A DNA stretch of 25,453 bases from a virus, in the IMG/VR virus record IMGVR_UViG_3300036715_000784, positions 1 through 25,453 of that record; one strand, given 5' to 3'. Numbering within the stretch: position 1 is the first letter of the stretch; the number at the start of each line of letters is the position of its first letter. Below, piece by piece: positions 1 through 20,736 of the stretch. Position numbers and translations under genes: made by a program. The notes under the pieces are model-generated. The model worked only from the letters and a program-made list of their open reading frames with translations. It searched no databases and was not told the DNA's origin.

Positions 1-1
1 G

Positions 2-337
2 GACTGCGGCATGTTCCTGGCTGAGGTCTACGAGCAGACGGGCGTCATGCCCCATGTGGTCCCCGATGAATACCCCCCCGACTGGCACATGCACCAGGAC
101 GGAGAGCGGTACCTGGGCCTGGTGGCGGCCCATGCCCACCAGGTGGAGGTCGGCCTGCCGGGTGACATCGTGCTTTATCGCTTCGGCAGGTGCGTCAGCC
201 ATGGCGCCATTGTCATCGCCTGGCCTCAGATCATCCACGCCTACATCCGGCTGGGGGTTGTGCTGGACGAGGGGGAGCGAAACACCGTGCTGCGCGAGGC
301 GCAGGCTGGATTCTGGTCTCCGTGGGGAGGTGCCTGA
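2..337 (+). CDS. NlpC/P60-type tail peptidase, 5'-partial
   Basis: The reading frame is open to the left edge, so the gene starts upstream. It opens with Asp-Cys-Gly, the catalytic cysteine context of phage NlpC/P60 proteins, continues into a helix (MFLAEVYEQ), and later has the SHGAIVI strand that carries the catalytic His and an IIHAY segment fitting the third polar position. Phage members are tail-tip assembly or peptidoglycan hydrolases (lambda K-like) that help the tail cross the cell wall. The position directly before a J-like protein is the usual one. The TGA stop overlaps the ATG of the next gene by one base. The ATG at 11 is internal, because it would remove the catalytic Cys. Confidence 0.85.
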   Translation, partial: DCGMFLAEVYEQTGVMPHVVPDEYPPDWHMHQDGERYLGLVAAHAHQVEVGLPGDIVLYRFGRCVSHGAIVIAWPQIIHAYIRLGVVLDEGERNTVLREAQAGFWSPWGGA

Positions 338-2406
338 TGGGTGGGGTATTCGGAGGTAGACATAGCACCAGCACCACGGAGCAGGTTCTGGCCGGGATGC
401 AGATTCAGACCAGTTCCTACGGTGGGGTTCTGCCGATCGTCTATGGCACCACTCGCATCGCAGGGAATCTGGTCTACTACCCAATCAACGACTTCAAGGC
501 CATCCCCCACACCACCAGCACCACCGTGGGCAAGGGTGGCGGCGGTTCCACGGTCACCAACACCACCTACACCTACACGGCCTGCGTCATACTGGCGCTC
601 TGCGAGGGTCCCGCCACCAGCATCAACCAGGTTTGGAGGGACAAAGACCTGGGCAGTCTGTCCGGGTTCGGCTTCACCTTCTTTTCTGGAACCCGCACTC
701 AAACGCCCTGGAGCTACCTGACCTCCAACCACCCGACCCAAGCCACCGGCTACTCCGGCATGGTCCTGGTGGCTAACGCCGCTGCCGACCTGGGCAGTTC
801 CGGCGCCATGAAAAACCACAGCTTCGAGGTAATCGCCCTGGCCGCCACCCAGCAAGATCCTGCCGCCCACGCAGCCTATGATGCGAAGCCCTCGGATATT
901 GTCATCGACTTCCTGAGCAATGCCTACTACGGCGCCACATGGGACCCGACGAAGATTGGGGACCTGGTGACTGGCGCGGCAAGCTACGCCACCTATTGCC
1001 AAGCGGCGGGCTTCGTTCTGTCTCCCGCCTTCAACACCCAGAAGCCAGCGAGAACACACCTGCAGGACATTTTCGACGCCACAAACTCAGATTCCGTGTG
1101 GCACTCAAGCGCAACCAGTATGGTCCTGAATGTGGTGCCCTACGGCGACCAGCCCATCACAGCCAACGGGACCACCTACACCCCGAATACGACCCCGCTC
1201 TACGACCTGACCTACGACGACTTTCTCGGGGTGGTAGGGAAGGACGGGAAGCCCACCGGCAAGAGCCCCATCACGATTACCCGCACCTCCAACCAGGATG
1301 TCTACAATTCCGTTCCGGTCGAGTACTGGGACCGGCTGACGGGCTACAACGTGAGCGTGGTGGATGTTCCCGAGCCGACCGATGTGGCCGTGAACGGGCT
1401 CAAGAAGGCTTCCCCGATGAGCCTCCACATGATCACCCGGGCCAGCGTGGCGCAGTCCATCAGCACAATTAAGGCCCAGCGAAATGTCTATGTTCGGAAC
1501 CAATACACCTTCAACCTCGGCTGGCGCTACTTCCTGCTGGAGCCGATGGATCTTGTGACCCTCACGGACCCCATCATCGGCTTCGATCACAAGGTCGTCC
1601 GCATCCTCAGCATTGACATACCAGACGAGAGCAGTGAGGAGAACGGCATCACCGTTACCGCCGAGGAGTGGCCCTTCGGCGTGGCCACCGCCACAGCCTA
1701 CACGGTCCAGACGCCATCGGGCGTTGCGCCGAATGTGAATGCTGACCCTGGTCCGGCGGCTGACCCGACCATCTTCGACAGCCCTGCTCTCTGGTCGCAG
1801 AGTGGCGGCCCAGAGGTCACGCTGGCGGCGGCTGGTGGCTCAATCTGGGGTGGCGCCGAGGTCTGGGTCAGCACCACGGGGACGACCTATGCCAAGGCGG
1901 GCTACATCACCAACCCATGCCGTTTCGGCACCCTCACCGCCGCGCTGGCGGCCTACGCAGGCGGCACGGCCCAGGACAACACCAACACCCTCTCCGTCAC
2001 TATCCCCAACGGTGGTGCGCTCTTCAGTGTCGACAATGCCAGTGCGGCGGCTGGTCTGAATCTGATCTGGGTGGACGGGGAGATGATCAGTTTCCAGACT
2101 GCCACGCTCACGGGTACGAACGCCTACAATCTGACCGGGCTCTACCGTGGGCTCTACGGCACCTCACCTGGCAGCCATCTCTCCGGGGCGAAGTGGGCGA
2201 AGTGCGACCCCAATGTTTTCCACTACGCCATCCCGGCGGCGCAGGTGGGCGTCCCGCTCTATGTGAAGCTCGTCTCCTACAACCAATGGGGCGGCGGGCT
2301 GAGGCAGATCAGCGCCGAGACTGCATATACCTTCACGCCCACCCTCCAGACTCTGCCGGGGCCAACCAGCGTCACGGTAGCGGTCGCAGACACGCCTTTC
2401 TGGTGA
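337..2406 (+). CDS. J-like phage tail protein (host-specificity/tip type)
   Basis: This 689-residue protein starts at the ATG at 337, chosen for a GGAGG box at 326-330 and a one-base overlap with the preceding stop; an in-frame start at 190 would lie inside the upstream gene. The N-terminal part (GGVLPIVYGTTRIAGNLVYY) and the conserved region around residues 330-460, ending near EEWPFG, resemble the phage tail protein family that forms the baseplate hub or tip of siphoviruses. A Gly/Ser/Thr-rich loop lies near residues 60-75. The C-terminus enters what looks like a fibronectin III strand (LPGPTSVTVAV) but stops 6 residues later, while the next gene holds the likely remainder of that fold. Confidence 0.8.
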   Translation: MGGVFGGRHSTSTTEQVLAGMQIQTSSYGGVLPIVYGTTRIAGNLVYYPINDFKAIPHTTSTTVGKGGGGSTVTNTTYTYTACVILALCEGPATSINQVWRDKDLGSLSGFGFTFFSGTRTQTPWSYLTSNHPTQATGYSGMVLVANAAADLGSSGAMKNHSFEVIALAATQQDPAAHAAYDAKPSDIVIDFLSNAYYGATWDPTKIGDLVTGAASYATYCQAAGFVLSPAFNTQKPARTHLQDIFDATNSDSVWHSSATSMVLNVVPYGDQPITANGTTYTPNTTPLYDLTYDDFLGVVGKDGKPTGKSPITITRTSNQDVYNSVPVEYWDRLTGYNVSVVDVPEPTDVAVNGLKKASPMSLHMITRASVAQSISTIKAQRNVYVRNQYTFNLGWRYFLLEPMDLVTLTDPIIGFDHKVVRILSIDIPDESSEENGITVTAEEWPFGVATATAYTVQTPSGVAPNVNADPGPAADPTIFDSPALWSQSGGPEVTLAAAGGSIWGGAEVWVSTTGTTYAKAGYITNPCRFGTLTAALAAYAGGTAQDNTNTLSVTIPNGGALFSVDNASAAAGLNLIWVDGEMISFQTATLTGTNAYNLTGLYRGLYGTSPGSHLSGAKWAKCDPNVFHYAIPAAQVGVPLYVKLVSYNQWGGGLRQISAETAYTFTPTLQTLPGPTSVTVAVADTPFW

Positions 2407-2415
2407 GGTGTTGCA

Positions 2416-2706
2416 ATGAGGTCCAAGGATGACAGCGATGGGATCAGCGGCACGGGCGGCACGGGCGGCGGCCCTGCTGTCCTCCGACGGCAGTACATCG
2501 CCGTGACTTGGGAGTGGCCTTCCAATGTCGCAAATCCGTCCAGCTTTGAGGTTGCGATCTACACGGGCGCGGACCCCACCGCCACGGACACTTATGTGGT
2601 TCCTCTGAAGAAGTGCCTGGGCACGGATATGCGCTTACAGGTGACCGTCTCACCATCCACCAATCTGACGAACATCAGTGCGGCTGTGAGGGCATTGTAT
2701 GAGTAG
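2416..2706 (+). CDS. Small fibronectin-III-like tail protein
   Basis: A 96-residue protein. A Gly-rich stretch (GTGGTGGGPAV) at residues 12-22 leads into beta-strand-like sequence (YIAVTWEWP, SFEVAIYTG, MRLQVTVSP, ISAAVRALYE) that fits most of one FnIII domain. It begins 9 nt after the stop of the J-like gene and overlaps the next gene by 8 nt. It could be an independent small tail protein or the broken-off end of the J-like protein, since the J-like protein ends in what looks like the first strand of the same domain. No close family is recognised. Confidence 0.6.
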   Translation: MRSKDDSDGISGTGGTGGGPAVLRRQYIAVTWEWPSNVANPSSFEVAIYTGADPTATDTYVVPLKKCLGTDMRLQVTVSPSTNLTNISAAVRALYE

Positions 2707-5700
2707 CTCACCCTGGTCCACCAGTTCTGCCTCTGGAACCGCCACGGCATTGTCCACGGATCTGGCAACGGGGGCGGCTGTCGCCGCAGCTCAGACCGCC
2801 GCGAATAATGCTCAGGCTGCGGCTAATGCAGCACTTGACGGTCTCTCTATCATCATCTCGGACAATACCTTAAGCCCTGTCGAAAAATCCGCCGTAGTGT
2901 TGGACTACATGAACATTACGAATGAGCAGGCCGGGATTGATGCTCAAGCAGACGCTTACGCCGTGAGCCGCACGGCCTATGACACTTCCGTCTCGGCTCT
3001 GACCTCCTACCTCGGAACACTCACGGGCTGGAATGTCATTCCCGGCTCGGGCGTGACCATTGATGGCCCAACCTTCCGGCAGAAGTTTGCCGATGTGTAC
3101 TCCACTCGTCAGGCGCTTCTGAATGCGATCTATGCGAAGGCTAAGGCTCTGGCTGATGCGGCACAAGCCACGGGGAATAGCGCACAGACCGCCGCGAATA
3201 ATGCTCAGACAGCCGCGAATAACGCACAGACCGCAGCTAACACAGCGAACACAGCTCTCGCCAACATTGCCTCAGACAACATTCTCAGTCCTGGTGAGAA
3301 GCCTGCCGTAGTCCTCGACTACACCAACATCACGAATGAGCAATCCGGGATTGATGCTCAGGCTGGTGCCTTCACTTGCACAGCGGTTGATGCAGCTAAG
3401 GGGCCTTACGACACTGCCGTCTCATCACTGACCTCCTATCTGGGCACACTTACGGGTTGGAACGTCATCCCTGGTTCTGATGTAGCCATCGTGGGAACCA
3501 CCTTCAGACAGAAGTTTGCCGATGTGTACTCCACTCGTCAGGCCCTTCTGAATGCGATCTATGCCAGGGCCAAGGCGCTTGCAGATGCGGCGCAGTCTGG
3601 CGTCAACACCATCAACGACCCCGACACCCTCACCGTCGGTGAGAAGCCTCAGATCATCCTGGATTACAACGCGATCACGGGCGAGAACGCGGACCTCGTG
3701 GCGAAGGCCAATGCCTACAGCGTGGACCACTCCACCTATGACACGGCCTATTCCGCGCTGCTATCTTATCTGTCCACCCTCACCAGTCCCACGGCCTGGA
3801 ACTCCCTCAGCGGAACCACATCGCTTGGAACTGGCAACCGTGTGGCCTTGTGGAATCCGAAATGGGCCGCCGTAAAGAATGCCGCCTCCGATCTACGTAA
3901 CGCCATTGCGGCTGGAGCTGGGCAGAAGGCGATCAGCACGGCAGCGACGGACGCCAGCACCAAGGCCAACGCCGCACAACTCGCGTCCCAGCCACATCAG
4001 GTGGCGTGGGCCTATGCGTCCAAGCCAGCGCTTCCGAGTGCGCTCTATCCCGCAGGTTACTACGCGATCACCACGGACGCCCGCACGGTGCAGGTGAACG
4101 CGGCAGGCACGGCGTGGACGGATGTGCTGGTGGCGGCGACGGGGGTTTTCGGACAGTTCTTTACGAAGCAGCTTGTGGTAATGAACTTCGACAATCTGAT
4201 CCCAAACCCCAATAGTGAGCTGGATCTTACGAACATGCCGGTCGGGAGCTATGAGGGCGCTGGGGTTGTCACCGCATCGGACTATGGACTTTCGGCACGG
4301 TCAGGAACAAAGGTTCGACTCGTCCAAAGCTCCCAAGTGCCCTTGTGGCTTACGGATTTCATCCCGTGTGGTGTTGGCGACCAGTTTTACTTCGAGGGAT
4401 ACGCCATTCCCATAGATGTAGCCGGGCAGCGGATAGACTTCTTCGTGGTTTTCTTCGGCGCCGACAAAGTTACGGAATTGGCGTATCCGATGGGGTCTAC
4501 CTATGCGCCTGGCAATGTGTGGAGCAAGGTGTCCGTAGCGTCAACACCAGCTCCGGCAGGTGCGCTTTATGTTCGGTTTGCCGCTCAGACCTACTCGACC
4601 ACCACCAGATACCTCATTGACGATCTATATGCCCGCCGAATGGCCGACGCCTCCATGATCGTGGATGGCACTCTCCAAGCCCTCGTGGTGAAGACCCCGC
4701 TGCTCTACTCGCTGGACATCCGGAGCGGGTCGAACGCGAGCGGGTACCAGGCGGGCACAAATAGCTCGGCACCCGTCGGGTTCAGGATCAGCGCGACACC
4801 GTTCCCCACTTCTTACCTCGGTGCCTCTGGCCAGGATGCCACCCTAGTTCAAATGGAGCTTGGTGCTGGCATCAATATCGCAGGCTATAAATTGTCTGGC
4901 CTGACTGCCCGTTCCATGAGCGCCATCGGTGACAATTTGCAGACCGGAATGTCCTTTCGATGCTTCTACCGTGGGAGCAATGACCCTGGTACCAGGGGCG
5001 GACGCCCCAACATCTCTCGGCTCACCATCACGCCAACGCTCTACCAGACGGACACCACCTACACGGGACGCCTCGATCTCAAGCTGGCACCAAGTTCATA
5101 CACGGATAATTTGGATGGGCTCTCCTACGCCAAGATCGAGTTATTCAGCCAGTCCGCCGCCGGCACAACGGCCACGCTGACCGCACAGGGTGTCTACTAT
5201 TGCACACTGCCAGATCGGATCTACTACAACCCAACGAGTGATTCAGATCCCGGGAACGCGTCCTATGCGACCCAGGTTATTGCCGAGGCTGCGCTGCCAG
5301 GATTCCCGGCATGCAAGGTCACGCTCTACGGCGTGGCGGGATCGAGCGATACCCACTGTTTCTATTCGGCGTCCGGGTGGAATGTTGGGACTGCGCTCAC
5401 GGACAACGGCACAGCTTGGCCGTCAGGTATCACGGGGTCAACGGGTGGCGGAACTGGCGGTGGCACGGGCGGTGGAGGTGCCTGTCCAGACCCCAATGTG
5501 CCTTTGCTCATGGCCGATGGCACCGAGAAGCCTGCTGGTGTTATCCGTGTTGGTGACCGTGTTGTAGCCTGGGACGAAGACGCAGGGTGCGAATGCGTGG
5601 AGGAAGTCACGAGCGCAGTTATGAGCACAAACCACCGCTGGCTGCTTGTTCTTTCCAACGGGCGCACGGGCAAGTTCGCCTCCAATCACCGATTCCTGCT

Positions 5701-5878
5701 TAGTGACGGACATTGGCAAGAAATACAGCACCTAGTCCCCGGCGATGTGCTAACGAACGGCCTAGTTGTAGAATCCGCACGGGCCGACGTTTACGGGCCT
5801 GTCGTCAAGATCACCGTCAACCGAGTCCACACTTACATCACGCTGGGTGTGGTATCCCACAATGTGAAGCCCCAATAG
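2699..5878 (+). CDS. Repeat-containing tail/fibre protein with C-terminal Hint domain
   Basis: A 1059-residue protein. Residues ~20-55 and ~160-190 are Ala/Asn/Gln-rich (AQTAANNAQTAAN), likely coiled coil. Three tandem modules of about 110-140 residues follow, each opening with D-N-x-L-S-P-x-E-K-like sequence and LDY-x-x-IT-x-E; the first two are near-identical around TFRQKFADVYSTRQALLNAIYA. The middle (about 480-910) looks like beta-rich carbohydrate-binding or fibre sequence. After a Gly/Thr linker (~913-927) comes a complete Hint fold: Cys929, VRVGDRVVAWD-like block A, SNHRF block B, and VHTYITLGVVSHN at the end with His1054-Asn1055, followed by only four residues. Hint domains self-cleave through a thioester at the first Cys. 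The late position, after the J-like gene, fits a central fibre or tip protein. Confidence 0.8.
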   Translation: MSSSPWSTSSASGTATALSTDLATGAAVAAAQTAANNAQAAANAALDGLSIIISDNTLSPVEKSAVVLDYMNITNEQAGIDAQADAYAVSRTAYDTSVSALTSYLGTLTGWNVIPGSGVTIDGPTFRQKFADVYSTRQALLNAIYAKAKALADAAQATGNSAQTAANNAQTAANNAQTAANTANTALANIASDNILSPGEKPAVVLDYTNITNEQSGIDAQAGAFTCTAVDAAKGPYDTAVSSLTSYLGTLTGWNVIPGSDVAIVGTTFRQKFADVYSTRQALLNAIYARAKALADAAQSGVNTINDPDTLTVGEKPQIILDYNAITGENADLVAKANAYSVDHSTYDTAYSALLSYLSTLTSPTAWNSLSGTTSLGTGNRVALWNPKWAAVKNAASDLRNAIAAGAGQKAISTAATDASTKANAAQLASQPHQVAWAYASKPALPSALYPAGYYAITTDARTVQVNAAGTAWTDVLVAATGVFGQFFTKQLVVMNFDNLIPNPNSELDLTNMPVGSYEGAGVVTASDYGLSARSGTKVRLVQSSQVPLWLTDFIPCGVGDQFYFEGYAIPIDVAGQRIDFFVVFFGADKVTELAYPMGSTYAPGNVWSKVSVASTPAPAGALYVRFAAQTYSTTTRYLIDDLYARRMADASMIVDGTLQALVVKTPLLYSLDIRSGSNASGYQAGTNSSAPVGFRISATPFPTSYLGASGQDATLVQMELGAGINIAGYKLSGLTARSMSAIGDNLQTGMSFRCFYRGSNDPGTRGGRPNISRLTITPTLYQTDTTYTGRLDLKLAPSSYTDNLDGLSYAKIELFSQSAAGTTATLTAQGVYYCTLPDRIYYNPTSDSDPGNASYATQVIAEAALPGFPACKVTLYGVAGSSDTHCFYSASGWNVGTALTDNGTAWPSGITGSTGGGTGGGTGGGGACPDPNVPLLMADGTEKPAGVIRVGDRVVAWDEDAGCECVEEVTSAVMSTNHRWLLVLSNGRTGKFASNHRFLLSDGHWQEIQHLVPGDVLTNGLVVESARADVYGPVVKITVNRVHTYITLGVVSHNVKPQ
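3080..3565 (+). repeat. Pair of near-identical 57-bp direct repeats inside the tail gene
   Basis: Bases 3080-3136 and 3509-3565 match with one visible difference (a G/C change in the middle of the GCNCTT stretch). They are 429 bp apart and encode the same segment of two adjacent protein repeats. The near-identity at DNA level, including silent positions, implies a recent duplication or gene conversion. Recombination between them would delete one repeat module in frame, since 429 is a multiple of three. Confidence 0.8.
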
Positions 5879-5892
5879 CTATAGGAGCCACC

Positions 5893-6339
5893 ATGGCCGA
5901 CACCCTTCAAACCCTTGCCTTTCTCAATGGAAAGGAGGCCGCGCTCACCCAAGCTAAGAACCTGGTGGATCAGTGCGCCGCTTCCATCGCCCAACTCCAA
6001 GCGGCCAACTACGCGGAGAAAGCACCCATCGTCGCCTCGCTCCAGGGCGTACCCACCATCGGCATCAAGTCGCAACTCACCGTTGAGGCCGAGGCCGAGC
6101 GGCTGGTGGGCATCGGGGCCATGATTGACGCGATCAAGGCCAACCCCGACATTGACCCCACAGCAACCGAAGCGGCCTGGGTCACAGCAGTTGCGGCATT
6201 CACCACGAACCCGGCCATTGAGAACCCCGTGGGCGTGGTCACGGCCATCATGCGGATCATCAACGCACCTGACTGGGCATCGTTCAAGTCCATCATCGTG
6301 GCCGGGGTCAAGGCTGATCTGATCGCGGCGGTATCATAG
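5893..6339 (+). CDS. Hypothetical phage protein, helical, downstream of fibre gene
   Basis: A 148-residue Ala-rich, mostly helical protein of unknown function (MADTLQTLAFLNGKEAAL, AVSAFTTNPAIENP-like segments). The ATG at 5893 is chosen for a TAGGAG box 6 nt upstream and because the longer frame to 5713 runs backwards into the Hint-domain coding region. It lies 14 nt after the tail protein stop, so it may be a fibre-assembly or tail-associated protein by position only. No membrane segment or catalytic motif is seen. Confidence 0.65.
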   Translation: MADTLQTLAFLNGKEAALTQAKNLVDQCAASIAQLQAANYAEKAPIVASLQGVPTIGIKSQLTVEAEAERLVGIGAMIDAIKANPDIDPTATEAAWVTAVAAFTTNPAIENPVGVVTAIMRIINAPDWASFKSIIVAGVKADLIAAVS

Positions 6340-6436
6340 CTGCCCTTGGCGGTGGACTCGTCCCAACATCAAGATCCTGGATTAGAACGCCCGTGGAGGG
6401 CACTGTGCAACACATCACGAAAGCACCGAGGTACAC

Positions 6437-6826
6437 ATGGGGGCAGAGTTCGAGACCTACGCGATGCGGGGACTGGTGGCTGTGCTGGGGGCGGCCCTCT
6501 CCGCCTTCATTTGGCGGGAGGTCACCTCCAAGGACAAACTGTGGAGGGCGGTCAATCAGAACCGGATGGACCATGAAGCCGCGTTGAAAGAAGCGCGGGA
6601 CAGTTTCACCCGCGCCCTGGAGCGTGTGGCCGACCAGTTCCGCCTGTCCATTGACTCACTGAACGACACCATCGGAAGCCTCAGCGCCACCGTGTCTAAG
6701 CTCGATAGTACGATGGCCCGAGATTACGCCACCAAGGATGACTTGCGGGAAACGCGGAACGAACTACGCACGGAGATCCAGTACCATACAGAGAACTGCC
6801 CGCTGAAATATGGAGGTGACCGATGA
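6437..6826 (+). CDS. Membrane-anchored coiled-coil protein of the lysis region
   Basis: A 129-residue protein with one hydrophobic N-terminal segment (about residues 10-26, GLVAVLGAALSAFIW) followed by a long charged helix with heptad character (residues ~40-115) and a short C-terminal tail with a single Cys. This topology is common in phage lysis regions (Bdr/XhlA-like or holin-accessory proteins), but no family is recognised. A GAGG box lies about 6 nt before the ATG. The stop overlaps the next start (ATGA). The 97-nt gap upstream holds no gene. Confidence 0.65.
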   Translation: MGAEFETYAMRGLVAVLGAALSAFIWREVTSKDKLWRAVNQNRMDHEAALKEARDSFTRALERVADQFRLSIDSLNDTIGSLSATVSKLDSTMARDYATKDDLRETRNELRTEIQYHTENCPLKYGGDR

Positions 6827-7203
6827 ACCTGAACTTCAGCCAGTCCACCGGCATGGTGACCAGGGATGACGGCGCACACGTTGGCCAGGGATGGGCTGGG
6901 AATGGGGAGGGCAAGTGCAACCCCGCCATGCAGCACGTCCACAACGTGGGGCCGCTACCCCAGGGCATCTACCGCCTCGGCCCTTGGCAGAACCATCCCC
7001 ACCTGGGACGGATGGTGGCGCCCCTGACCCAGATCACCGGGGAGACCTTCGGGCGGGACGGCTTCTTCATCCACGGGCCGAGCATGGACCCCGCCCGCCG
7101 AGGCCAGGAGTCCCAGGGGTGCTGCGTGGTTCCTTTCGCCGGGCGACTGAAGATCCACGACCTCACACCCGGCCCCGATGACACACTGACGGTGACACCA
7201 TGA
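6823..7203 (+). CDS. DUF2778 (Tlde1-like) protein, candidate endolysin
   Basis: A 126-residue protein. It has the DUF2778 signature: an N-terminal beta hairpin with GKCNPAMQHVHNVGPLPQGIY, then IHGPSMDPARRGQESQGCCVV, where the His (HGPS) and the Ser-x-Gly-Cys segment are the expected active-site residues of the L,D-transpeptidase-like fold. The founding member of this family, Tlde1, is a type VI secretion effector that cleaves or exchanges peptidoglycan cross-links. Here the gene sits between a membrane protein and a holin-like gene, where a phage endolysin is expected, and no other lysin is seen. Function as lysin is therefore inferred. A strong GGAGG precedes the ATG. Confidence 0.75.
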   Translation: MNLNFSQSTGMVTRDDGAHVGQGWAGNGEGKCNPAMQHVHNVGPLPQGIYRLGPWQNHPHLGRMVAPLTQITGETFGRDGFFIHGPSMDPARRGQESQGCCVVPFAGRLKIHDLTPGPDDTLTVTP

Positions 7204-7228
7204 CCGCGTTCCTGCTCGGGAGGATGTA

Positions 7229-7504
7229 ATGCCACCGTGGCTGACTGATCTATTGGAGAAGTTGAGGCCGCGCCTAGGTATTGGCCGCGCCTTTGACAGC
7301 CAGGACCACACCCTGGAGGTCAACCTGGCCGCCTATGGTGTGGGGCTCATCGCCGCTGCGGGTTGGCTGACGTGGTGGTTCTACACCGGCCCACGGGACG
7401 GCAACCTGGTCCTAGCCCTCAGCGCTTTCCTCACCGCCATTACCGGCGGCCTGTTCAAGAAGGGGTCCAATGCACCGGAACCACCGAAGGGGGACGAGCC
7501 GTGA
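7229..7504 (+). CDS. Holin-like two-TM protein
   Basis: A 91-residue protein with a short amphipathic N-terminus, a first hydrophobic segment (about residues 32-53, containing AAYGVGLIAAAGWLTWWFY), a short loop (TGPRDGN), a second hydrophobic segment (about 60-76) and a charged Lys/Pro-rich tail. Size, two membrane segments and charged C-terminus match phage holins. It follows the candidate lysin and precedes a spanin-like gene. GGAGG stands 4-5 nt before the ATG. Its stop overlaps the next GTG start. Confidence 0.65.
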   Translation: MPPWLTDLLEKLRPRLGIGRAFDSQDHTLEVNLAAYGVGLIAAAGWLTWWFYTGPRDGNLVLALSAFLTAITGGLFKKGSNAPEPPKGDEP

Positions 7505-8166
7505 ACGACGCTCAGAAGGGGCTTGTCGCCTGCGTTCTGGTATTCGGGGCCGGGCTAGGGACAGGATGGATGCTGTGGAGGCCGAAGACCCCGAAGCCGG
7601 AGACCTACGCCCCCGCCGCAAGGCAGCAGGACGGAAGCCTGGTGCTGGATCGCAAGCCGCAGCAGGACGCGAAGCCCGTCCAGCAGATCCCCAAGGGGGC
7701 AAAGGTGGAGCGCATCGTCCAGGTGACCGTCCACCCAAACCCAGGTCCGGGGCCTTTGCGCCCCTCCGCGTCCGATGCTTCGGGAACCGTTGACAACCGT
7801 GAAACAGCGCCGCCCTTAATTTCAGTTCCAGGGGGAAACGAAAATAAGCCCCCCTGCCCGCCCGTGCGCGTGGACCTCAGCCTAGTGAGGATGCCTGACC
7901 AGTCCCGCCGCGTGGTGGCATCCAGCCCTGACGGTGTGGTCGTGGGCGGGGTGGACATCCCTGTGGATGCGGCGGTGCCTCAGCGGGTTCTGAAGTGGGC
8001 AGCGGGGCCAAGCTGGAACCCTGCCGACAGAACCTTCGGCGCATGGATCGAGCGGGACGCTGGGTTCCTCCGCCTGGGAGCCGATCTCCACCAAGTGCGA
8101 GAACCCACGGCGGCGGGTGGCCGCACCACATGGGCTGGGTTCATCCGGGTCGGTATTCAGTTCTGA
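7501..8166 (+). CDS. Spanin-like membrane-anchored protein
   Basis: A 221-residue protein from a GTG start that overlaps the holin stop (GTGA). The N-terminus carries one membrane segment (GLVACVLVFGAGLGTGWMLW), followed by a Pro/Gln/Lys-rich periplasm-type stretch and a folded C-terminal part with KWAAGPSWNPADRTFGAW and a final strand GFIRVGIQF. Topology and last position in the lysis cassette resemble an inner-membrane spanin or another phage envelope protein, but it lacks the long coiled coil of Rz. The family is not recognised. The terminator at 8228-8259 follows. Confidence 0.55.
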   Translation: MNDAQKGLVACVLVFGAGLGTGWMLWRPKTPKPETYAPAARQQDGSLVLDRKPQQDAKPVQQIPKGAKVERIVQVTVHPNPGPGPLRPSASDASGTVDNRETAPPLISVPGGNENKPPCPPVRVDLSLVRMPDQSRRVVASSPDGVVVGGVDIPVDAAVPQRVLKWAAGPSWNPADRTFGAWIERDAGFLRLGADLHQVREPTAAGGRTTWAGFIRVGIQF

Positions 8167-8612: not shown

Positions 8613-8730
8613 GAAGCCCATTCTCCGTCGGCACCAAGAACACCCCACCACCCCGCCTCGGTCCTTCCCGCATGAGCGCGAAGCCGTGGCCTACGCCAGC
8701 AAAACGCTGGAGATTGAGGTTGAGCGATGA
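8599..8730 (+). CDS. Possible small coupled ORF (TTG start)
   Basis: A 43-residue basic, Pro-rich frame (starts LAQPKKPILRRHQEH) begins at a TTG overlapping the end of the Cro-like gene and ends in a TGA that overlaps the ATG of the YqaJ gene (ATGA). It fills the only gap between the two genes, as expected for a coupled small gene. The start is non-ATG and the ribosome site is weak (AAGG), so this may be chance. No family recognised. Confidence 0.4.
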   Translation: MAQPKKPILRRHQEHPTTPPRSFPHEREAVAYASKTLEIEVER

Positions 8731-9770
8731 GCAATGAACTGATGATGAAGGCCACGGCATCCGCCACGACCTCCGTGTTAGGCGCCATGGAGGCCCCGAC
8801 CGAGGAGACCATGGAACAGCGCCGCAAAAGATGGCTGGATGATCGCCGGAAGGCCATCAGTGCCACCGACCTAGCCAAGATCCTCGGCCTCTCCCCGAAA
8901 TCCTGGGGCGGCCCGATGAGCGTGTGGCTTGCCAAGACTGGAGCCCTCATGGATGAGGACTTCGTGATGAGCGAGGAGATGGAGATGGGCCTCGAACTGG
9001 AGGAGACCATCCTCCGGGTCTACGCCAAGCGCACGGGGCACGAAATCGTCCGCGCTGACCCCTATGACTTCCGCAAGGTGCCGGGTTCCGACATCCTCGG
9101 CGCCTCCTTCGATGCCCGCCGCGCAGGGGGTGACCACCGCCCGGTGGACGCCAAGAATGTGGGTTACTGCGATCCCTCAAAGGGCTGGGGAGAGCCGGGG
9201 ACCGATCAGATCACCAAGGGCTACCTTGTCCAACTCCATGTGCAGATGATGGTGGACACCGCGCCCTACGCGGACCTCGCCGTCCTCGAACGGGGCCAGA
9301 AGTTCCGGTGCTATGAGGTCGAGGCCGACCTGGAGCTTCACGCCTTCTTCAAGGAGGCCGCCGAGAGTTTCTGGCTCAACCATGTGATCGCGGACATCCC
9401 GCCCGAAGTGGACGGCTCCGATGATTGGGGCCACTACCTGGGGAAGATGGCGCAGGCCACCAAGGCGGTCAAAGACCCCACCCCTGAGCAACTGGAGGAG
9501 GCGAAGCGCCTCTTTGAAATCCGCACCACCATGGCGGCCCTGGACGAGGAGCAGAAGGCCATCGAGAACCGCCTGAAGCAAGCCATTGGGGAAGCCTCCG
9601 GCCTCAAGGGCATCGCCACTTGGAATCAAACCAAGGGGCGCGTCACCACCCGCTGGGAGGAACTGGCCCGCAAGCACATCCACGAAAAAGACCTCGAGCG
9701 CCTCATCCCCGAGTTCACGGCGGCTGGCAACGGCTACCGCACCTTCCGCTTCAACTTCAAAGGAGAATGA
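8727..9770 (+). CDS. YqaJ-family phage exonuclease
   Basis: A 347-residue protein. The N-terminal third carries the YqaJ hallmark RRKAISATDLAKILGLSP, followed by GLELEETILRVYAKRTGHE. Acidic metal ligands fit in GLELEE, GASFDARR and PVDAKNV (the PD-(D/E)xK core), and YLVQLHVQM is the usual glutamine helix. Such enzymes digest one DNA strand from double-strand ends and hand the single strand to an annealase, here the RecT gene 3 nt downstream. The C-terminal ~110 residues form a coiled-coil extension with a terminal beta part. Translation is coupled through ATGA with the small ORF upstream. Confidence 0.9.
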   Translation: MSNELMMKATASATTSVLGAMEAPTEETMEQRRKRWLDDRRKAISATDLAKILGLSPKSWGGPMSVWLAKTGALMDEDFVMSEEMEMGLELEETILRVYAKRTGHEIVRADPYDFRKVPGSDILGASFDARRAGGDHRPVDAKNVGYCDPSKGWGEPGTDQITKGYLVQLHVQMMVDTAPYADLAVLERGQKFRCYEVEADLELHAFFKEAAESFWLNHVIADIPPEVDGSDDWGHYLGKMAQATKAVKDPTPEQLEEAKRLFEIRTTMAALDEEQKAIENRLKQAIGEASGLKGIATWNQTKGRVTTRWEELARKHIHEKDLERLIPEFTAAGNGYRTFRFNFKGE

Positions 9771-11682: not shown

Positions 11683-11763
11683 ATGAAACAGAAAGAACTA
11701 GCATCACGGGTGGAATCCCTGGGGTGGATCTACGCGATGCGCGGATCGAAAGGATGGCGCTGA
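11683..11763 (+). CDS. Possible 26-residue HicA-N-terminus-like peptide
   Basis: A short frame with GGAG at 5-nt spacing before its ATG; its TGA overlaps the next ATG by one base. The sequence (KELASRVESLGW, then MRGSKG) resembles the first helix and the G-W-x-x-x-R-x-x-G-S region of HicA toxins, but the rest of HicA is absent. It may be a coupling leader peptide. Low confidence because of length. Confidence 0.35.
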   Translation: MKQKELASRVESLGWIYAMRGSKGWR

Positions 11764-12755
11764 TGGCACGGTGCAGGATGGACCGACCTGAGCGGGCCGA
11801 TTATTTCCGCATCTTCTCCAGACATATGCTCATGGATGAGGACTACGAGAACCTGAGCCGTGAGGAATGGGGCTCCGTTTTCCTCCTCATGCTCCACCAA
11901 TGGGCCAAGGGCGGCACCCTGCCCGATGACCGCCGGAAGTTGGCTGGGCTGGCCCGATGCACCCCGGATGAACTGGATGACCTGCTGGCGAAGTGGCCGA
12001 AGCTGGAGCCAGTCACCGGCCAGCCGGGGAGGACCGGCATCCCCTACTTGGTCAGGGAATGGGATCAGGTGATGAGTTTCTACGAGGAGCAGAGGAACCG
12101 TGGTAAAGCCTCCGCTGAAGCGCGGGGGCGGAAATCGGGGGCGCCGGACGAGCCGAACCCCAACCATGGTTCGAACCATGGTTCAACCGCCGGTTCAACC
12201 GCCGGTTCAACCAACCAAGACCAAGACCAAGACCAAGACCAAGACCAAGACCAAGACCAAGACCAAGACCAAGACAAAAAGAAAACTACTACCGCGACCC
12301 GCAAGCGGGCCTCGGCGCAAAGGGCCGGTGAGTCCCTGGAGGAGATTCTGAGGGGTGGGAAAGGAACCCCGTACTGGGAAGCCTACTGGAAACTCTCAGG
12401 CACTTTCGGCGGCCAGCCCAAGAACCCCGCCCCCAAGACCACGGCCAAGCTCTACATGAGCGCCACCGTGGGCTACCACCCGGATCACATACAGGAACGG
12501 GCGGAGGCTCTGCGGGCGTCCATCAGCGAGGTCCGGTTCATGCCTCAACTCCAGAAGTGGCTGGAGGGCCAGGGGTATGCCACCCCGGACCTCCCTGCCC
12601 CTCCCCCCCATCCTCAAGGAGCCAAACATGGATCTGCGACCCATCGCCACGCGATGCGCGATGCCGCCCTCAAAGCCCAACTCAGTGACGCCGGAGCCCA
12701 CACCCTGCCCGGTCTGCAAGATCCCGATGTGGCCAGACCGGAAGAACCCTGGTGA
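11763..12755 (+). CDS. DUF1376-like phage replication-region protein
   Basis: A 330-residue protein. Residues 5-105 (ADYFRIFSRHMLMDEDYENL, GSVFLLMLHQWAKGGTLPDD, LAGLARCTPDELDDLL) match the DUF1376 helical domain found next to phage helicase loaders. A disordered linker with ten Asp-Gln pairs follows (CCAAGA repeats), then a second domain (about 190-290) with YWEAYWKLSGTFGGQPKNPA. The start at 11763 is chosen for AAAGGA at 11749-11754 and the overlap with the preceding TGA; GTG at 11724 and ATG at 11754 lack a suitable site. The 3' end overlaps the next gene by about 128 nt, which is unusually long. Confidence 0.75.
   Translation: MARCRMDRPERADYFRIFSRHMLMDEDYENLSREEWGSVFLLMLHQWAKGGTLPDDRRKLAGLARCTPDELDDLLAKWPKLEPVTGQPGRTGIPYLVREWDQVMSFYEEQRNRGKASAEARGRKSGAPDEPNPNHGSNHGSTAGSTAGSTNQDQDQDQDQDQDQDQDQDQDKKKTTTATRKRASAQRAGESLEEILRGGKGTPYWEAYWKLSGTFGGQPKNPAPKTTAKLYMSATVGYHPDHIQERAEALRASISEVRFMPQLQKWLEGQGYATPDLPAPPPHPQGAKHGSATHRHAMRDAALKAQLSDAGAHTLPGLQDPDVARPEEPW
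12215..12274 (+). repeat. CCAAGA hexanucleotide tandem repeat, ten copies
   Basis: Ten perfect CCAAGA units encode an Asp-Gln run inside the linker of the DUF1376-like protein. Just upstream are two GGTTCAACCGCC copies and two ATGGTTC copies. The six-base unit means slippage would lengthen or shorten the linker without a frameshift. Confidence 0.95.
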
Positions 12756-15056: not shown

Positions 15057-15626
15057 ATGGAAACGATCACTTTCAGGGTCAAAGGCGCGGCGCTCTTGAT
15101 GCACAACATCAGACTGGCGAATCCGCTGGACCCCATCAGCAAGCGGATGAAGGCCCTAACCAGCATCCGCAAAAAAACGGATGAGAATATGTCGGACATC
15201 GCAGACATTGAGTTCGAGGGCGGCCTCTACTACGACGAGGCGATCGGCCCCTACATCCCAGGCCTATGGCTGGATGCCTGCCTCGTCGACGGCGGGAAGC
15301 TCCAGAAGAACGGCACTAAGATCAAGCAAAGCGCCCTTGTCCTGGACGACATGGTGCCTATCGAATACGACGGGCCGCGAAGCATGGAGAAGCTGAAGGC
15401 TGACCCTCGGTTCCGCGATGTCCGCGCCGTGACCGTGGGGCAGGCCAAGACGATGCGGTGCCGCCCGAAGTTCACAAACTGGGCCGCCCAGTTCTCGGTT
15501 CAGTTCGACCCGCAACTCATCAACCGGAACGAGTTGGTAGCGGCGCTTCATGCGGCGGGCCAGTGCAAGGGCCTGGGTGACTTCCGCCCCCGGTTCGGAC
15601 GGTTCACTGCTGAGGTTGTGGAGTGA
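15057..15626 (+). CDS. Hypothetical phage protein of the recombination region
   Basis: A 189-residue protein with a good AGGGAGA box before its ATG. It opens with TITFRVKGAALLMHNIRLAN and ends with GLGDFRPRFGRFTAEVVE, with strands and basic residues throughout (KTMRCRPKFTNWAAQFSVQF). The Gly-rich end resembles loops in RAMP-type nucleic-acid-binding proteins, but not strongly enough to name. Its neighbour with the SSB-type tail and the absence of an SSB gene make DNA or RNA binding a reasonable guess. Confidence 0.6.
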   Translation: METITFRVKGAALLMHNIRLANPLDPISKRMKALTSIRKKTDENMSDIADIEFEGGLYYDEAIGPYIPGLWLDACLVDGGKLQKNGTKIKQSALVLDDMVPIEYDGPRSMEKLKADPRFRDVRAVTVGQAKTMRCRPKFTNWAAQFSVQFDPQLINRNELVAALHAAGQCKGLGDFRPRFGRFTAEVVE

Positions 15627-15636
15627 ATTCAGAGAC

Positions 15637-15731
15637 GGCTGGGCTAGACGTGGCAAGGTCAGGTGGGGCGCGGCTAGGCTCGGCGAGGCGTGGCCTGGCA
15701 CGGCATGGCCTGGCAAGACGCGGCGCGGCAG
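15637..15731 (+). repeat. GGCNN degenerate pentamer repeat, block 1
   Basis: Nineteen consecutive 5-bp units, fifteen of which begin GGC while positions 4 and 5 vary; the exceptions are GACGT, GGTCA, GGTGG and GACGC. The lack of codon periodicity and the gap between two well-supported genes argue that it is non-coding even though one frame is open through it. GG every 5 bases would permit stacked two-tier G-quadruplexes on the + strand. Confidence 0.85.
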
Positions 15732-15735
15732 GGGT

Positions 15736-15786
15736 GTGCGGCTTCATGCCGCACCACCGAGGGGACTGCGGTCTCTTGGGTGGTGC
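15736..15786 (+). ncRNA. Two mutually exclusive hairpins between the pentamer blocks
   Basis: Hairpin A: GTGCGGC-TTCAT-GCCGCAC (15736-15754). Hairpin B: 15751-15786, sixteen positions per arm, starting GCACCACC and ending GGTGGTGC, with one G-G mismatch and two G-U pairs around a TGCG loop. They share GCAC at 15751-15754, so only one can form fully. This is the layout of a switch or an attenuator, but no ligand or T-tract is evident. Confidence 0.5.
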
Positions 15787-15799
15787 GACAGCATCAGAC

Positions 15800-15859
15800 G
15801 GCCTGGACGGGCTGGGCGAGGCGAGGCATGGCACGGCTGGGCGAGGCAAGGCAGGGTCA
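15800..15859 (+). repeat. GGCNN degenerate pentamer repeat, block 2
   Basis: Twelve consecutive units, ten beginning GGC (exceptions GGACG and GGTCA). Same strand and type as block 1 but in a different phase (offset 163 bp). It ends 25 bp before the start codon of the next gene, just upstream of its AAGGGAGAA ribosome site. Confidence 0.85.
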
Positions 15860-15883
15860 ACACAAACAACCAAGGGAGAAACC

Positions 15884-16363
15884 GTGAACGTCAAAAAATC
15901 ACCGATCTGGAAGCAGGCCATTGAGGACTTCCTGGCCTCGGACTTCGGCTACGGGGATACAGTCCCACACGCCTGGTTCGTGGATCACTTCGGGCTCGAA
16001 CTGCCCACCACGGCCCGTCAGCAGAAGGACTTTCAGGCTCAACTGGCGCGGTACTTCGCCAAGTTCCGAGGCCACATGCTCAAGCACCACCTCATGGACT
16101 TCGTGAACGTGTGGGGCTCCGGCTACCTAGTCGTGAAACCTGGGGATCAGACGCGATATGCACTGAAGGACACGCGAGACGCCATCCGAAAGGCGCTGAG
16201 CGAAGGGACCAAGCGGACGGTCTTCGTGAACCAAACCATGCTCACGGAAGCCCAGCGTCAAGAAAACACGGATGCGATCAACAAATTGGCCGCTCTCCAG
16301 GCCATTGCATCGCCCAAAAAATGGCTTCACACTCTGCGTGAAGGCTCAAAAGGAGCTATTTGA
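15884..16363 (+). CDS. Hypothetical phage protein with HTH-like N-terminus
   Basis: A 159-residue protein from a GTG with AAGGGAG 6 nt upstream. The frame stays open back to 15623 across the pentamer repeats, but that part is low-complexity Gly/Arg/Ala and is rejected. The N-terminal half (WKQAIEDFLASDFGYGDTVPHAWFVDHFGLELP, then FAKFRGHMLKHHLMDF) matches the helical layout of small phage DNA-binding or primase-associated domains; the C-terminal half is charged helix. Function unknown. The stop overlaps the next ATG (TGATG). Confidence 0.65.
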   Translation: MNVKKSPIWKQAIEDFLASDFGYGDTVPHAWFVDHFGLELPTTARQQKDFQAQLARYFAKFRGHMLKHHLMDFVNVWGSGYLVVKPGDQTRYALKDTRDAIRKALSEGTKRTVFVNQTMLTEAQRQENTDAINKLAALQAIASPKKWLHTLREGSKGAI

Positions 16364-19897: not shown

Positions 19898-19981
19898 AGA
19901 AACACGAAATTCATCATCTTCGATAAGCGCGGAACAGTGATTGAGAGACACCCAACCCAACTCCACGGATCGAACCCATGA
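19898..19981 (+). CDS. Possible 28-residue peptide (ACG start)
   Basis: AAAAGGAGAACC is followed by ACG AGA AAC ACG AAA TTC; the frame reads TRNTKFIIFDKRGTVIERHP and ends in a TGA overlapping ATG 19978 (ATGA). It may be a small leader gene whose ATG mutated to ACG, or use a rare start. Low confidence. Confidence 0.3.
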   Translation, partial: RNTKFIIFDKRGTVIERHPTQLHGSNP

Positions 19982-20007
19982 CCCGAACCACCAAGAAGGA
20001 AACTCCG

Positions 20008-20736
20008 ATGACGTTGCAACGATATACCCCCGCAAAGCTCCAGACCGTCTTGGCTAATCACAAGAAATGGCTTGCGGGTGACGAAGACTCCAGGGCGGAC
20101 CTTTATGGGGCCGATCTCTCCGGTGTCGATCTCACCGGGTCGGATCTCGCCGGTGCCGACATCTCTGACGCGGACCTTTCCGGTGCGAACCTCACAAAGG
20201 CGATACTCGCCGGGGCGAACCTCCACGGCACAGACCTCGCAGGTGCGAATCTCACCGGAGCGAACCTCGACATGGTAAACCTTACCGATGCTGATCTCTA
20301 TGGCGCGAACCTTGCCAGGACGAGCCTCTACGGTGCAGGCCTGGCTGGGGCGAAACTGGCCGGTGCGAACCTCTCCGGGGCGAATCTCGATGAGGCGGAC
20401 CTCGCCGGGGCCGATCTCTCCGGAGCGAATCTTGTCGGGGCGAAACTCACCGGTGCAAGATACGAGGACCTGAAACTGGCCGCAGTCGTGGTGCTCACAG
20501 GTCTCTACAAGTACCAATGCTGGGCTGCGGTCAGTGTTGACGGCGCGCCCTACGTGCTCATGGGATGCCTCTTCCACTCAGTGGATGAGTGGGACGCCAT
20601 CGGCATCCGCAATAGCAACCCCAGCGAGTTCCCTGATGACGGTAGCGCGAAATCTGAGGAGCGCGTGGCGGCCTTTGAGTTTGTGCGGGCCAAGGCGCTA
20701 CGTATGGCTGAGGCACACAGGAAGGAGATGTCATGA
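20008..20736 (+). CDS. Cassette gene E, pentapeptide-repeat protein
   Basis: A 242-residue protein. After an N-terminal helix (YTPAKLQTVLANHKKWLAG) come about 25 A-(D/N)-L-x-x pentapeptides (residues ~28-150), predicting a right-handed beta-helix. The C-terminal ~90 residues form a separate domain (AAVSVDGAPYVLMGCLFHSVDEW). Members such as Qnr or MfpA mimic DNA and protect gyrase, but most are of unknown role. The ATG at 20008 has AAGAAGGAAA upstream; ATG 19978 is an alternative supported by overlap with the small frame above. Confidence 0.8.
   Translation: MTLQRYTPAKLQTVLANHKKWLAGDEDSRADLYGADLSGVDLTGSDLAGADISDADLSGANLTKAILAGANLHGTDLAGANLTGANLDMVNLTDADLYGANLARTSLYGAGLAGAKLAGANLSGANLDEADLAGADLSGANLVGAKLTGARYEDLKLAAVVVLTGLYKYQCWAAVSVDGAPYVLMGCLFHSVDEWDAIGIRNSNPSEFPDDGSAKSEERVAAFEFVRAKALRMAEAHRKEMS

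What the first reader, a model, noticed from the sequence alone, without database searches (positions are those of the whole stretch)
15637..15859. GGCNN degenerate pentamer tract in a non-coding gap
31 units in two blocks (19 and 12) keep GGC while positions 4 and 5 vary freely. Selection seems to act on a 5-bp rhythm of GGC rather than on a fixed sequence. GG every five bases could form serial two-layer quadruplexes on the + strand, or be a pairing or recombination substrate for the phage annealase. The tract lies directly before a ribosome site.
Basis: partly seen in the sequence, partly recalled or inferred. Interest (0 to 1): 0.6.

Follow-up and report, generated by a model that had tools for sequence, protein, structure and literature searches.

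The report
Phage VIPR guide-RNA pair (GGY/NN repeats)
The odd five-letter rhythm is two guide-RNA genes of a phage weapon described only in 2026 (VIPR), in which the two variable letters of each unit spell the DNA target; this is a new example of that system rather than a new kind of system.

Summary
In detail: 31 five-base units in two blocks (15637-15731, 19 units; 15800-15859, 12 units). GGC is exact in 25 of 31, position 3 is a pyrimidine in 30 of 31, and the last two bases vary freely. The upstream gene (15057-15626) matches the SUSP1 Vipr protein in the PDB (E 5.7e-35), with a Cas7/Csm3-like predicted fold. The downstream gene (15884-16363) is homologous to the gene after vipr in SUSP1, inferred to be Vap1. 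The tract is therefore a pair of vrRNAs of a type II VIPR system, known from a 2026 preprint (PMC13142463): GGY scaffold, NN guide, target read xNNxNN. Vipr loci found by protein alone carried such tracts in 15 of 23 cases, control loci in 0 of 124. No convincing natural target was found for either guide. Differences from studied members: guide 1 is long (19 units) with a hairpin tail unlike the Pseudomonas-type tail; guide 2 has no structured tail and ends 24 nt before the vap1 start codon. Verdict: new member of a known, very recent kind.

The parts
15057..15626 (+). vipr: RAMP/Cas7-like guide-RNA-binding protein, 189 aa
   Evidence: phmmer to PDB 36pp_D 'SUSP1 Vipr protein' E 5.7e-35 over residues 4-188; phrog_4652 E 4.2e-55; AlphaFold2 pLDDT 92.7, Foldseek top hit Csm 9ash_F E 2.3e-5, VIA Z up to 11.1
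15637..15731 (+). vrRNA 1 guide tract, 19 GGY/NN units; NN = TG TA GT AA CA GG GC TA TC GA GT CT AC AT CT AA GC GC AG
15732..15786 (+). structured 3' element of vrRNA 1 (strong hairpin 15751-15786), placed like a vrRNA tail
   Evidence: 15727-15799 folds at -40.4 kcal/mol, z -3.6, 1 of 200 shuffles as low; no match to the Pseudomonas-type tail model R1
15800..15859 (+). vrRNA 2 guide tract, 12 GGY/NN units; NN = CT CG TG GA GA AT AC TG GA AA AG CA; no structured tail
   Evidence: 15800-15883 folds at z -0.5
15860..15883 (+). 24-nt link with ribosome site (GGGAG 15874-15878) between vrRNA 2 and vap1
15884..16363 (+). inferred vap1 (type II accessory protein), GTG start, 159 aa, predicted helix-helix-wing N-terminal half
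   Evidence: tblastn to the gene that follows vipr in Medea1 (E 9e-19) and to Felixounavirus-type phages; phmmer to the SUSP1 ORF after vipr E 6.4e-10; phrog_5926; model pLDDT 87.7

Best explanation
The tract encodes two guide RNAs (vrRNAs) of a type II VIPR system carried by a temperate phage. Vipr subunits bind the GGY triplets along the RNA. The NN pairs are displayed and pair with double-stranded DNA whose sequence reads x-NN-x-NN (one skipped base per unit). Binding blocks transcription of a competing phage, prophage or satellite gene, helped by the DNA-binding accessory protein Vap1. Shown here: the repeat, the Vipr homology and predicted fold, the linked accessory gene, the association across loci. 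Inferred from the 2026 preprint on relatives: RNA expression, binding, the skip code, repression. Unknown: the targets of these two guides.
For: Vipr: PDB 36pp_D E 5.7e-35; Cas7/Csm3 fold, 47 of the 50 listed VIA rows being titled as CRISPR effector proteins and the other 3 only as bacterial protein or complex. Gene order vipr - guides - accessory gene. Converse: Vipr loci found by protein alone hold a GGY tract in 15 of 23; control loci 0 of 44 and 0 of 80. In loci with vipr, 351 tracts lie on its strand and 7 on the other (most of these loci were chosen by tract). Positive control of the code in relatives: of two guides tested, one of P. juntendi (L173) finds a 22/24 xNN match in 119 Pseudomonas genomes (expected about 0.013), in frame with the skipped base at the codon wobble position, in an ORF beside Rha-like and AlpA-like ORFs as read by eye.
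Against: No natural target stands out for either window guide. Guide 1 has 19 units against the published 9-16. Its tail does not match the tail model of the Pseudomonas-type relatives, and guide 2 has no structured tail. Of the 23 Vipr loci found by protein, 8 show no GGY tract of seven or more. The second control guide (LESphi2) gave only a 3-mismatch hit, at chance level. No expression data.
Confidence: 0.95

Rival explanations
1. A DNA or RNA quadruplex tract: GG every five bases forms serial two-layer quadruplexes that regulate the downstream gene.
For: GG is kept in 29 of 31 units.
Against: Position 3 is a pyrimidine in 30 of 31, which a two-layer quadruplex does not need; the tract is tied to Vipr genes across unrelated phages; SUSP1 GGTNN tracts are guide RNAs by experiment (PMC13142463).
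Confidence: 0.02
2. A pairing or recombination substrate (ssDNA-binding site with 5-nt register) for the phage annealase.
For: The phage carries a RecE-like exonuclease at 8727-9770.
Against: The recombination gene is about 5.9 kb away, while vipr directly abuts the tract; tracts accompany vipr in other genomes.
Confidence: 0.01
3. Only block 1 is a working vrRNA; block 2 is a decayed or purely regulatory copy in the vap1 leader.
For: Block 2 has no structured tail and ends 24 nt before the vap1 start.
Against: Block 2 has 11 of 12 GGY units, so no decay is visible; tracts ending 17-50 nt before a vipr or vap start were found for 22 genes (17 vipr, 5 vap, the window's included), from 61 genes with a tract less than 400 nt upstream.
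Confidence: 0.2

Closest known systems
VIPR type II (Escherichia phage SUSP1; PMC13142463, main text read)
   Same: Vipr homolog, downstream accessory gene homologous to the one after SUSP1 vipr, GGY/NN tandem tracts on the same strand, phage-borne
   Different: Guides lie between vipr and vap1 (in SUSP1 one upstream and three downstream); GGC rather than GGT; guide 1 has 19 units; its tail is not the SUSP1 sequence; guide 2 is tail-less in the vap1 leader
Pseudomonas / LESphi2-type VIPR loci (L132, L172-L174) found here
   Same: GGC-type units and Vipr 43-47% identical
   Different: Those guides carry a covarying tail (GGGCTG..CAGC, long stem, then GGTG); the window has no match to its model
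CRISPR class 1 Cas7/Csm3 (RAMP) effectors
   Same: Fold of the RNA-binding backbone subunit
   Different: No repeat-spacer array was seen in the window and no Cas family matched the two genes; guide pairing is gapped, not contiguous (from the preprint)

Membership tests
VIPR | Vipr protein: RAMP homolog of about 20 kD | tested here: met
   36pp_D E 5.7e-35; Csm3/Cas7 fold, Z up to 11.1
VIPR | Non-coding tandem GGY/NN tracts with hypervariable NN near vipr, same strand | tested here: met
VIPR | 9-16 units per vrRNA (published for the characterised clades) | tested here: inconclusive
   Block 2 has 12; block 1 has 19, but RNA ends are unknown; 64 of 351 tracts in my Vipr loci have 17 or more units
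VIPR | Structured 3' tail | tested here: inconclusive
   Strong hairpin after block 1 (z -3.6), none after block 2; no match to the Pseudomonas-type tail model
VIPR type II | vap1 accessory gene beside vipr, predicted DNA-binding | tested here: met
   Homolog of the gene after vipr in SUSP1 and Medea1; that this gene is the authors' vap1 is inferred. Helix-helix-wing layout in the model, but Foldseek gave no hit with E below 0.1
VIPR | Encoded by a phage or provirus | tested here: met
   IMG/VR record; integrase, tail and RecE-like genes
VIPR | vrRNA expressed and bound by Vipr | not testable with these tools
   needs small-RNA sequencing and pull-down
VIPR | Guide NN pairs match a target by the 1-nt skip rule | tested here: inconclusive
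   No target above chance for the window guides; one of two relative guides tested gave a hit
CRISPR class 1 | Repeat-spacer array and cas genes | tested here: not met
   No such array among the 30 tandem-repeat rows; no Pfam, PADLOC or NCBIfam Cas match of the two genes. Other window genes were only partly screened

The most novel reading that the evidence does not exclude
Tail-less leader guides are a distinct class. A vrRNA fused to the vap (or vipr) messenger, ending about 17-50 nt before the start codon, would tie guide loading to translation: Vipr assembling on the guide would open, block or cleave off the leader, so that the accessory protein is made according to how much free Vipr there is. 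The window would then combine a tailed trans-acting guide (block 1) and a leader guide with a second, regulatory role (block 2).
Probability: 0.2. Interest if true: 0.65.

Novelty: new member of a known kind. Interest (0 to 1): 0.45.

Why it matters
VIPR is a just-described RNA-guided system read by a gapped code and proposed as older than CRISPR. Finding that the plain DNA pattern of ten GGCNN units retrieves Vipr loci in 87 of 120 cases gives a protein-free way to find VIPR systems, including those whose Vipr is too diverged or lies off the contig. The window adds a member with a guide longer than the published range, a different tail and a tail-less leader guide, which raises testable questions on vrRNA processing and on control of vap1.

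Tried and rejected
Quadruplex and annealase readings were set aside because the tract tracks Vipr genes and keeps a pyrimidine at position 3. Protein coding was rejected because the open frame through the tract is not part of the family match. Rfam: no match in the window up to E 0.5.

Targets. Five 16-base xNN sub-patterns in IMG/VR gave 13, 22, 1, 3 and 5 stretches. Extended to the whole guide the best were 27/38 and 26/38 (guide 1) and 19/24 (guide 2), about what chance gives. The one lead was L189/L191: eight exact units in the codon frame of a T7-like tail tubular protein B gene. In 80 homologous loci the unselected units 9-19 ranked 207th of 764 alignment columns at that site (index 206 counted from 0), so I do not claim it. 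A tblastn with the decoded 20-residue peptide found nothing. 24-base patterns with up to 3 mismatches found nothing in 8 genomes that hold related Vipr loci (guide 2 only) and in 398 Pseudomonadota genomes (reverse-pattern control 1, 0 and 0 hits). A pooled test of the skip rule on 1.46 Mb of held loci was uninformative and stopped on time, with about half of the guides scored. The host of the window stayed unknown: no DNA match of bases 1-7900 to phages.

The Vap1 model found no clear fold match in the PDB.

Full report
What is there. The window is an IMG/VR virus record of 25,453 bases, 62% G+C, with an integrase, tail and RecE-like genes: a temperate phage fragment. Between two genes on the + strand lie 31 five-base units in two blocks, 15637-15731 (19 units) and 15800-15859 (12 units). 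The triplet is GGC in 25, GGT in 3, GAC in 2 and GGA in 1; the NN pairs use 14 of 16 dinucleotides and the two blocks share no run of two consecutive NN pairs. Shuffles of the window never exceeded a run of 4 (100 shuffles) against an observed 10.

What it is. A paper search for pentanucleotide repeats in phages listed PMC13142463, a 2026 preprint on VIPR; I read its main text in full, not its supplement. It describes Vipr, a RAMP protein of about 20 kD, and vrRNAs of 9-16 YNNGG repeats, with GGY kept and NN variable, which recognise dsDNA by NN pairs separated by one skipped base. In a second search, for vrRNA, VIPR and phage, it was the only one of the 20 listed papers that holds 'vrRNA'.

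Test of the proteins. The 189-aa gene that ends 10 bases before the tract matches PDB chain 36pp_D, 'SUSP1 Vipr protein', at E 5.7e-35 over residues 4-188. An AlphaFold2 model on nine sequences has pLDDT 92.7. Foldseek's top hits are Csm/Cas7 chains (best E 2.3e-5); of the 50 VIA rows 47 are titled as CRISPR effectors and 3 only as a bacterial protein or complex, Z up to 11.1. The 159-aa gene after the tract has homologs in 119 phage records, among them the ORF that follows vipr in SUSP1 and in Medea1. I infer that this is Vap1. Its model has a helix-helix-wing layout but no clear PDB match. Pfam, PADLOC and NCBIfam gave no useful name for either gene.

Test of the link. Going the other way, loci fetched by Vipr protein alone hold GGY tracts of at least seven units in 1 of 2, 5 of 5 and 9 of 16 cases; 44 loci fetched by the target patterns and 80 tail-protein loci hold none. 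Guides between vipr and vap are common: among 28 loci with both genes on one strand, the between position is used in 14 (6 alone, 5 with upstream, 3 with downstream, window included).

RNA anatomy. After block 1 a 73-nt stretch folds at -40.4 kcal/mol (z -3.6), after block 2 nothing does (z -0.5). Tails of 16 guides from nine Pseudomonas-type and related loci share GGGCTG..CAGC and a long stem; 12 of 16 predicted pairs have compensatory changes. A covariance model of them finds nothing in the window, so the window's tail is of another kind. Block 2 ends 24 nt before the GTG of vap1. Tracts ending 50 nt or less before a vipr or vap start were found for 22 genes, the window's included, out of 61 genes with a tract less than 400 nt upstream; start codons were chosen by a simple rule.

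Targets. None was found above chance for the window's guides (see Tried and rejected). As a positive control of the code I tested two guides of relatives in 119 Pseudomonas genomes. One guide of P. juntendi has a 22/24 match (expected about 0.013 by a uniform-base estimate), in codon register with the skipped base at the wobble position, in a small ORF beside Rha-like and AlpA-like ORFs as read by eye. The other guide gave only a chance-level hit.

Mechanism. Most likely (0.95 that these are vrRNAs of VIPR): transcribed with vipr and vap1, bound by Vipr along the GGY register, guiding gapped recognition of DNA and repression of a competing element. The protein identities, the repeat and the linkage are shown here; expression, binding and repression are inferred from the published relatives.

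Novelty. New member of a known kind. New in detail: a 19-unit guide, a different tail, and a tail-less guide in the vap1 leader.

Noticed in passing
L019 about 6857-7058 (minus strand), L073 1474-1821, L133 2953-3030, L134 3163-3235 (L082 same genome): Some vrRNA tails end in a tRNA-like acceptor/T-arm minihelix: 8 of 432 tracts have the T-arm motif within 75 nt (0.95 expected), 5 of 432 with a full T-stem and at least 6 of 7 acceptor pairs (0.30 expected). Two of the loci are Gordonia phages. Suggests RNase P/Z processing of the guide. 'tRNA-like' has no occurrence in the preprint's held text; its supplement was not read. ARAGORN calls a tRNA-Pro in L073 and weak candidates in L134 and L082.
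   Followed up: partly
L180, L183-L187: Vipr homologs in Clostridia, Lachnospiraceae, Zixiibacteriota, Nitrosospira, Porphyromonadaceae and Bathyarchaeota MAGs with no GGY tract in the flanks; they may use another unit.
   Followed up: no
window 20180-20456: Pentapeptide-repeat-like array of 15/30-bp units inside ORF 19978-20736; naming from recall.
   Followed up: no
window 12161-12275: Perfect hexamer array (ACCAAG, 10.3 copies) next to a degenerate 12-mer array, inside the primosomal-like ORF 11724-12755.
   Followed up: no
L189 2718-2774: Guide 1 matches eight exact xNN units in the codon frame of a T7-like tail tubular protein B gene; not significant after controls.
   Followed up: yes
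L012 6310-7010, L031 874-2432 (minus strand): Very long GGY/NN arrays (about 140 units nearly in one register in L012), far longer than single vrRNAs.
   Followed up: no
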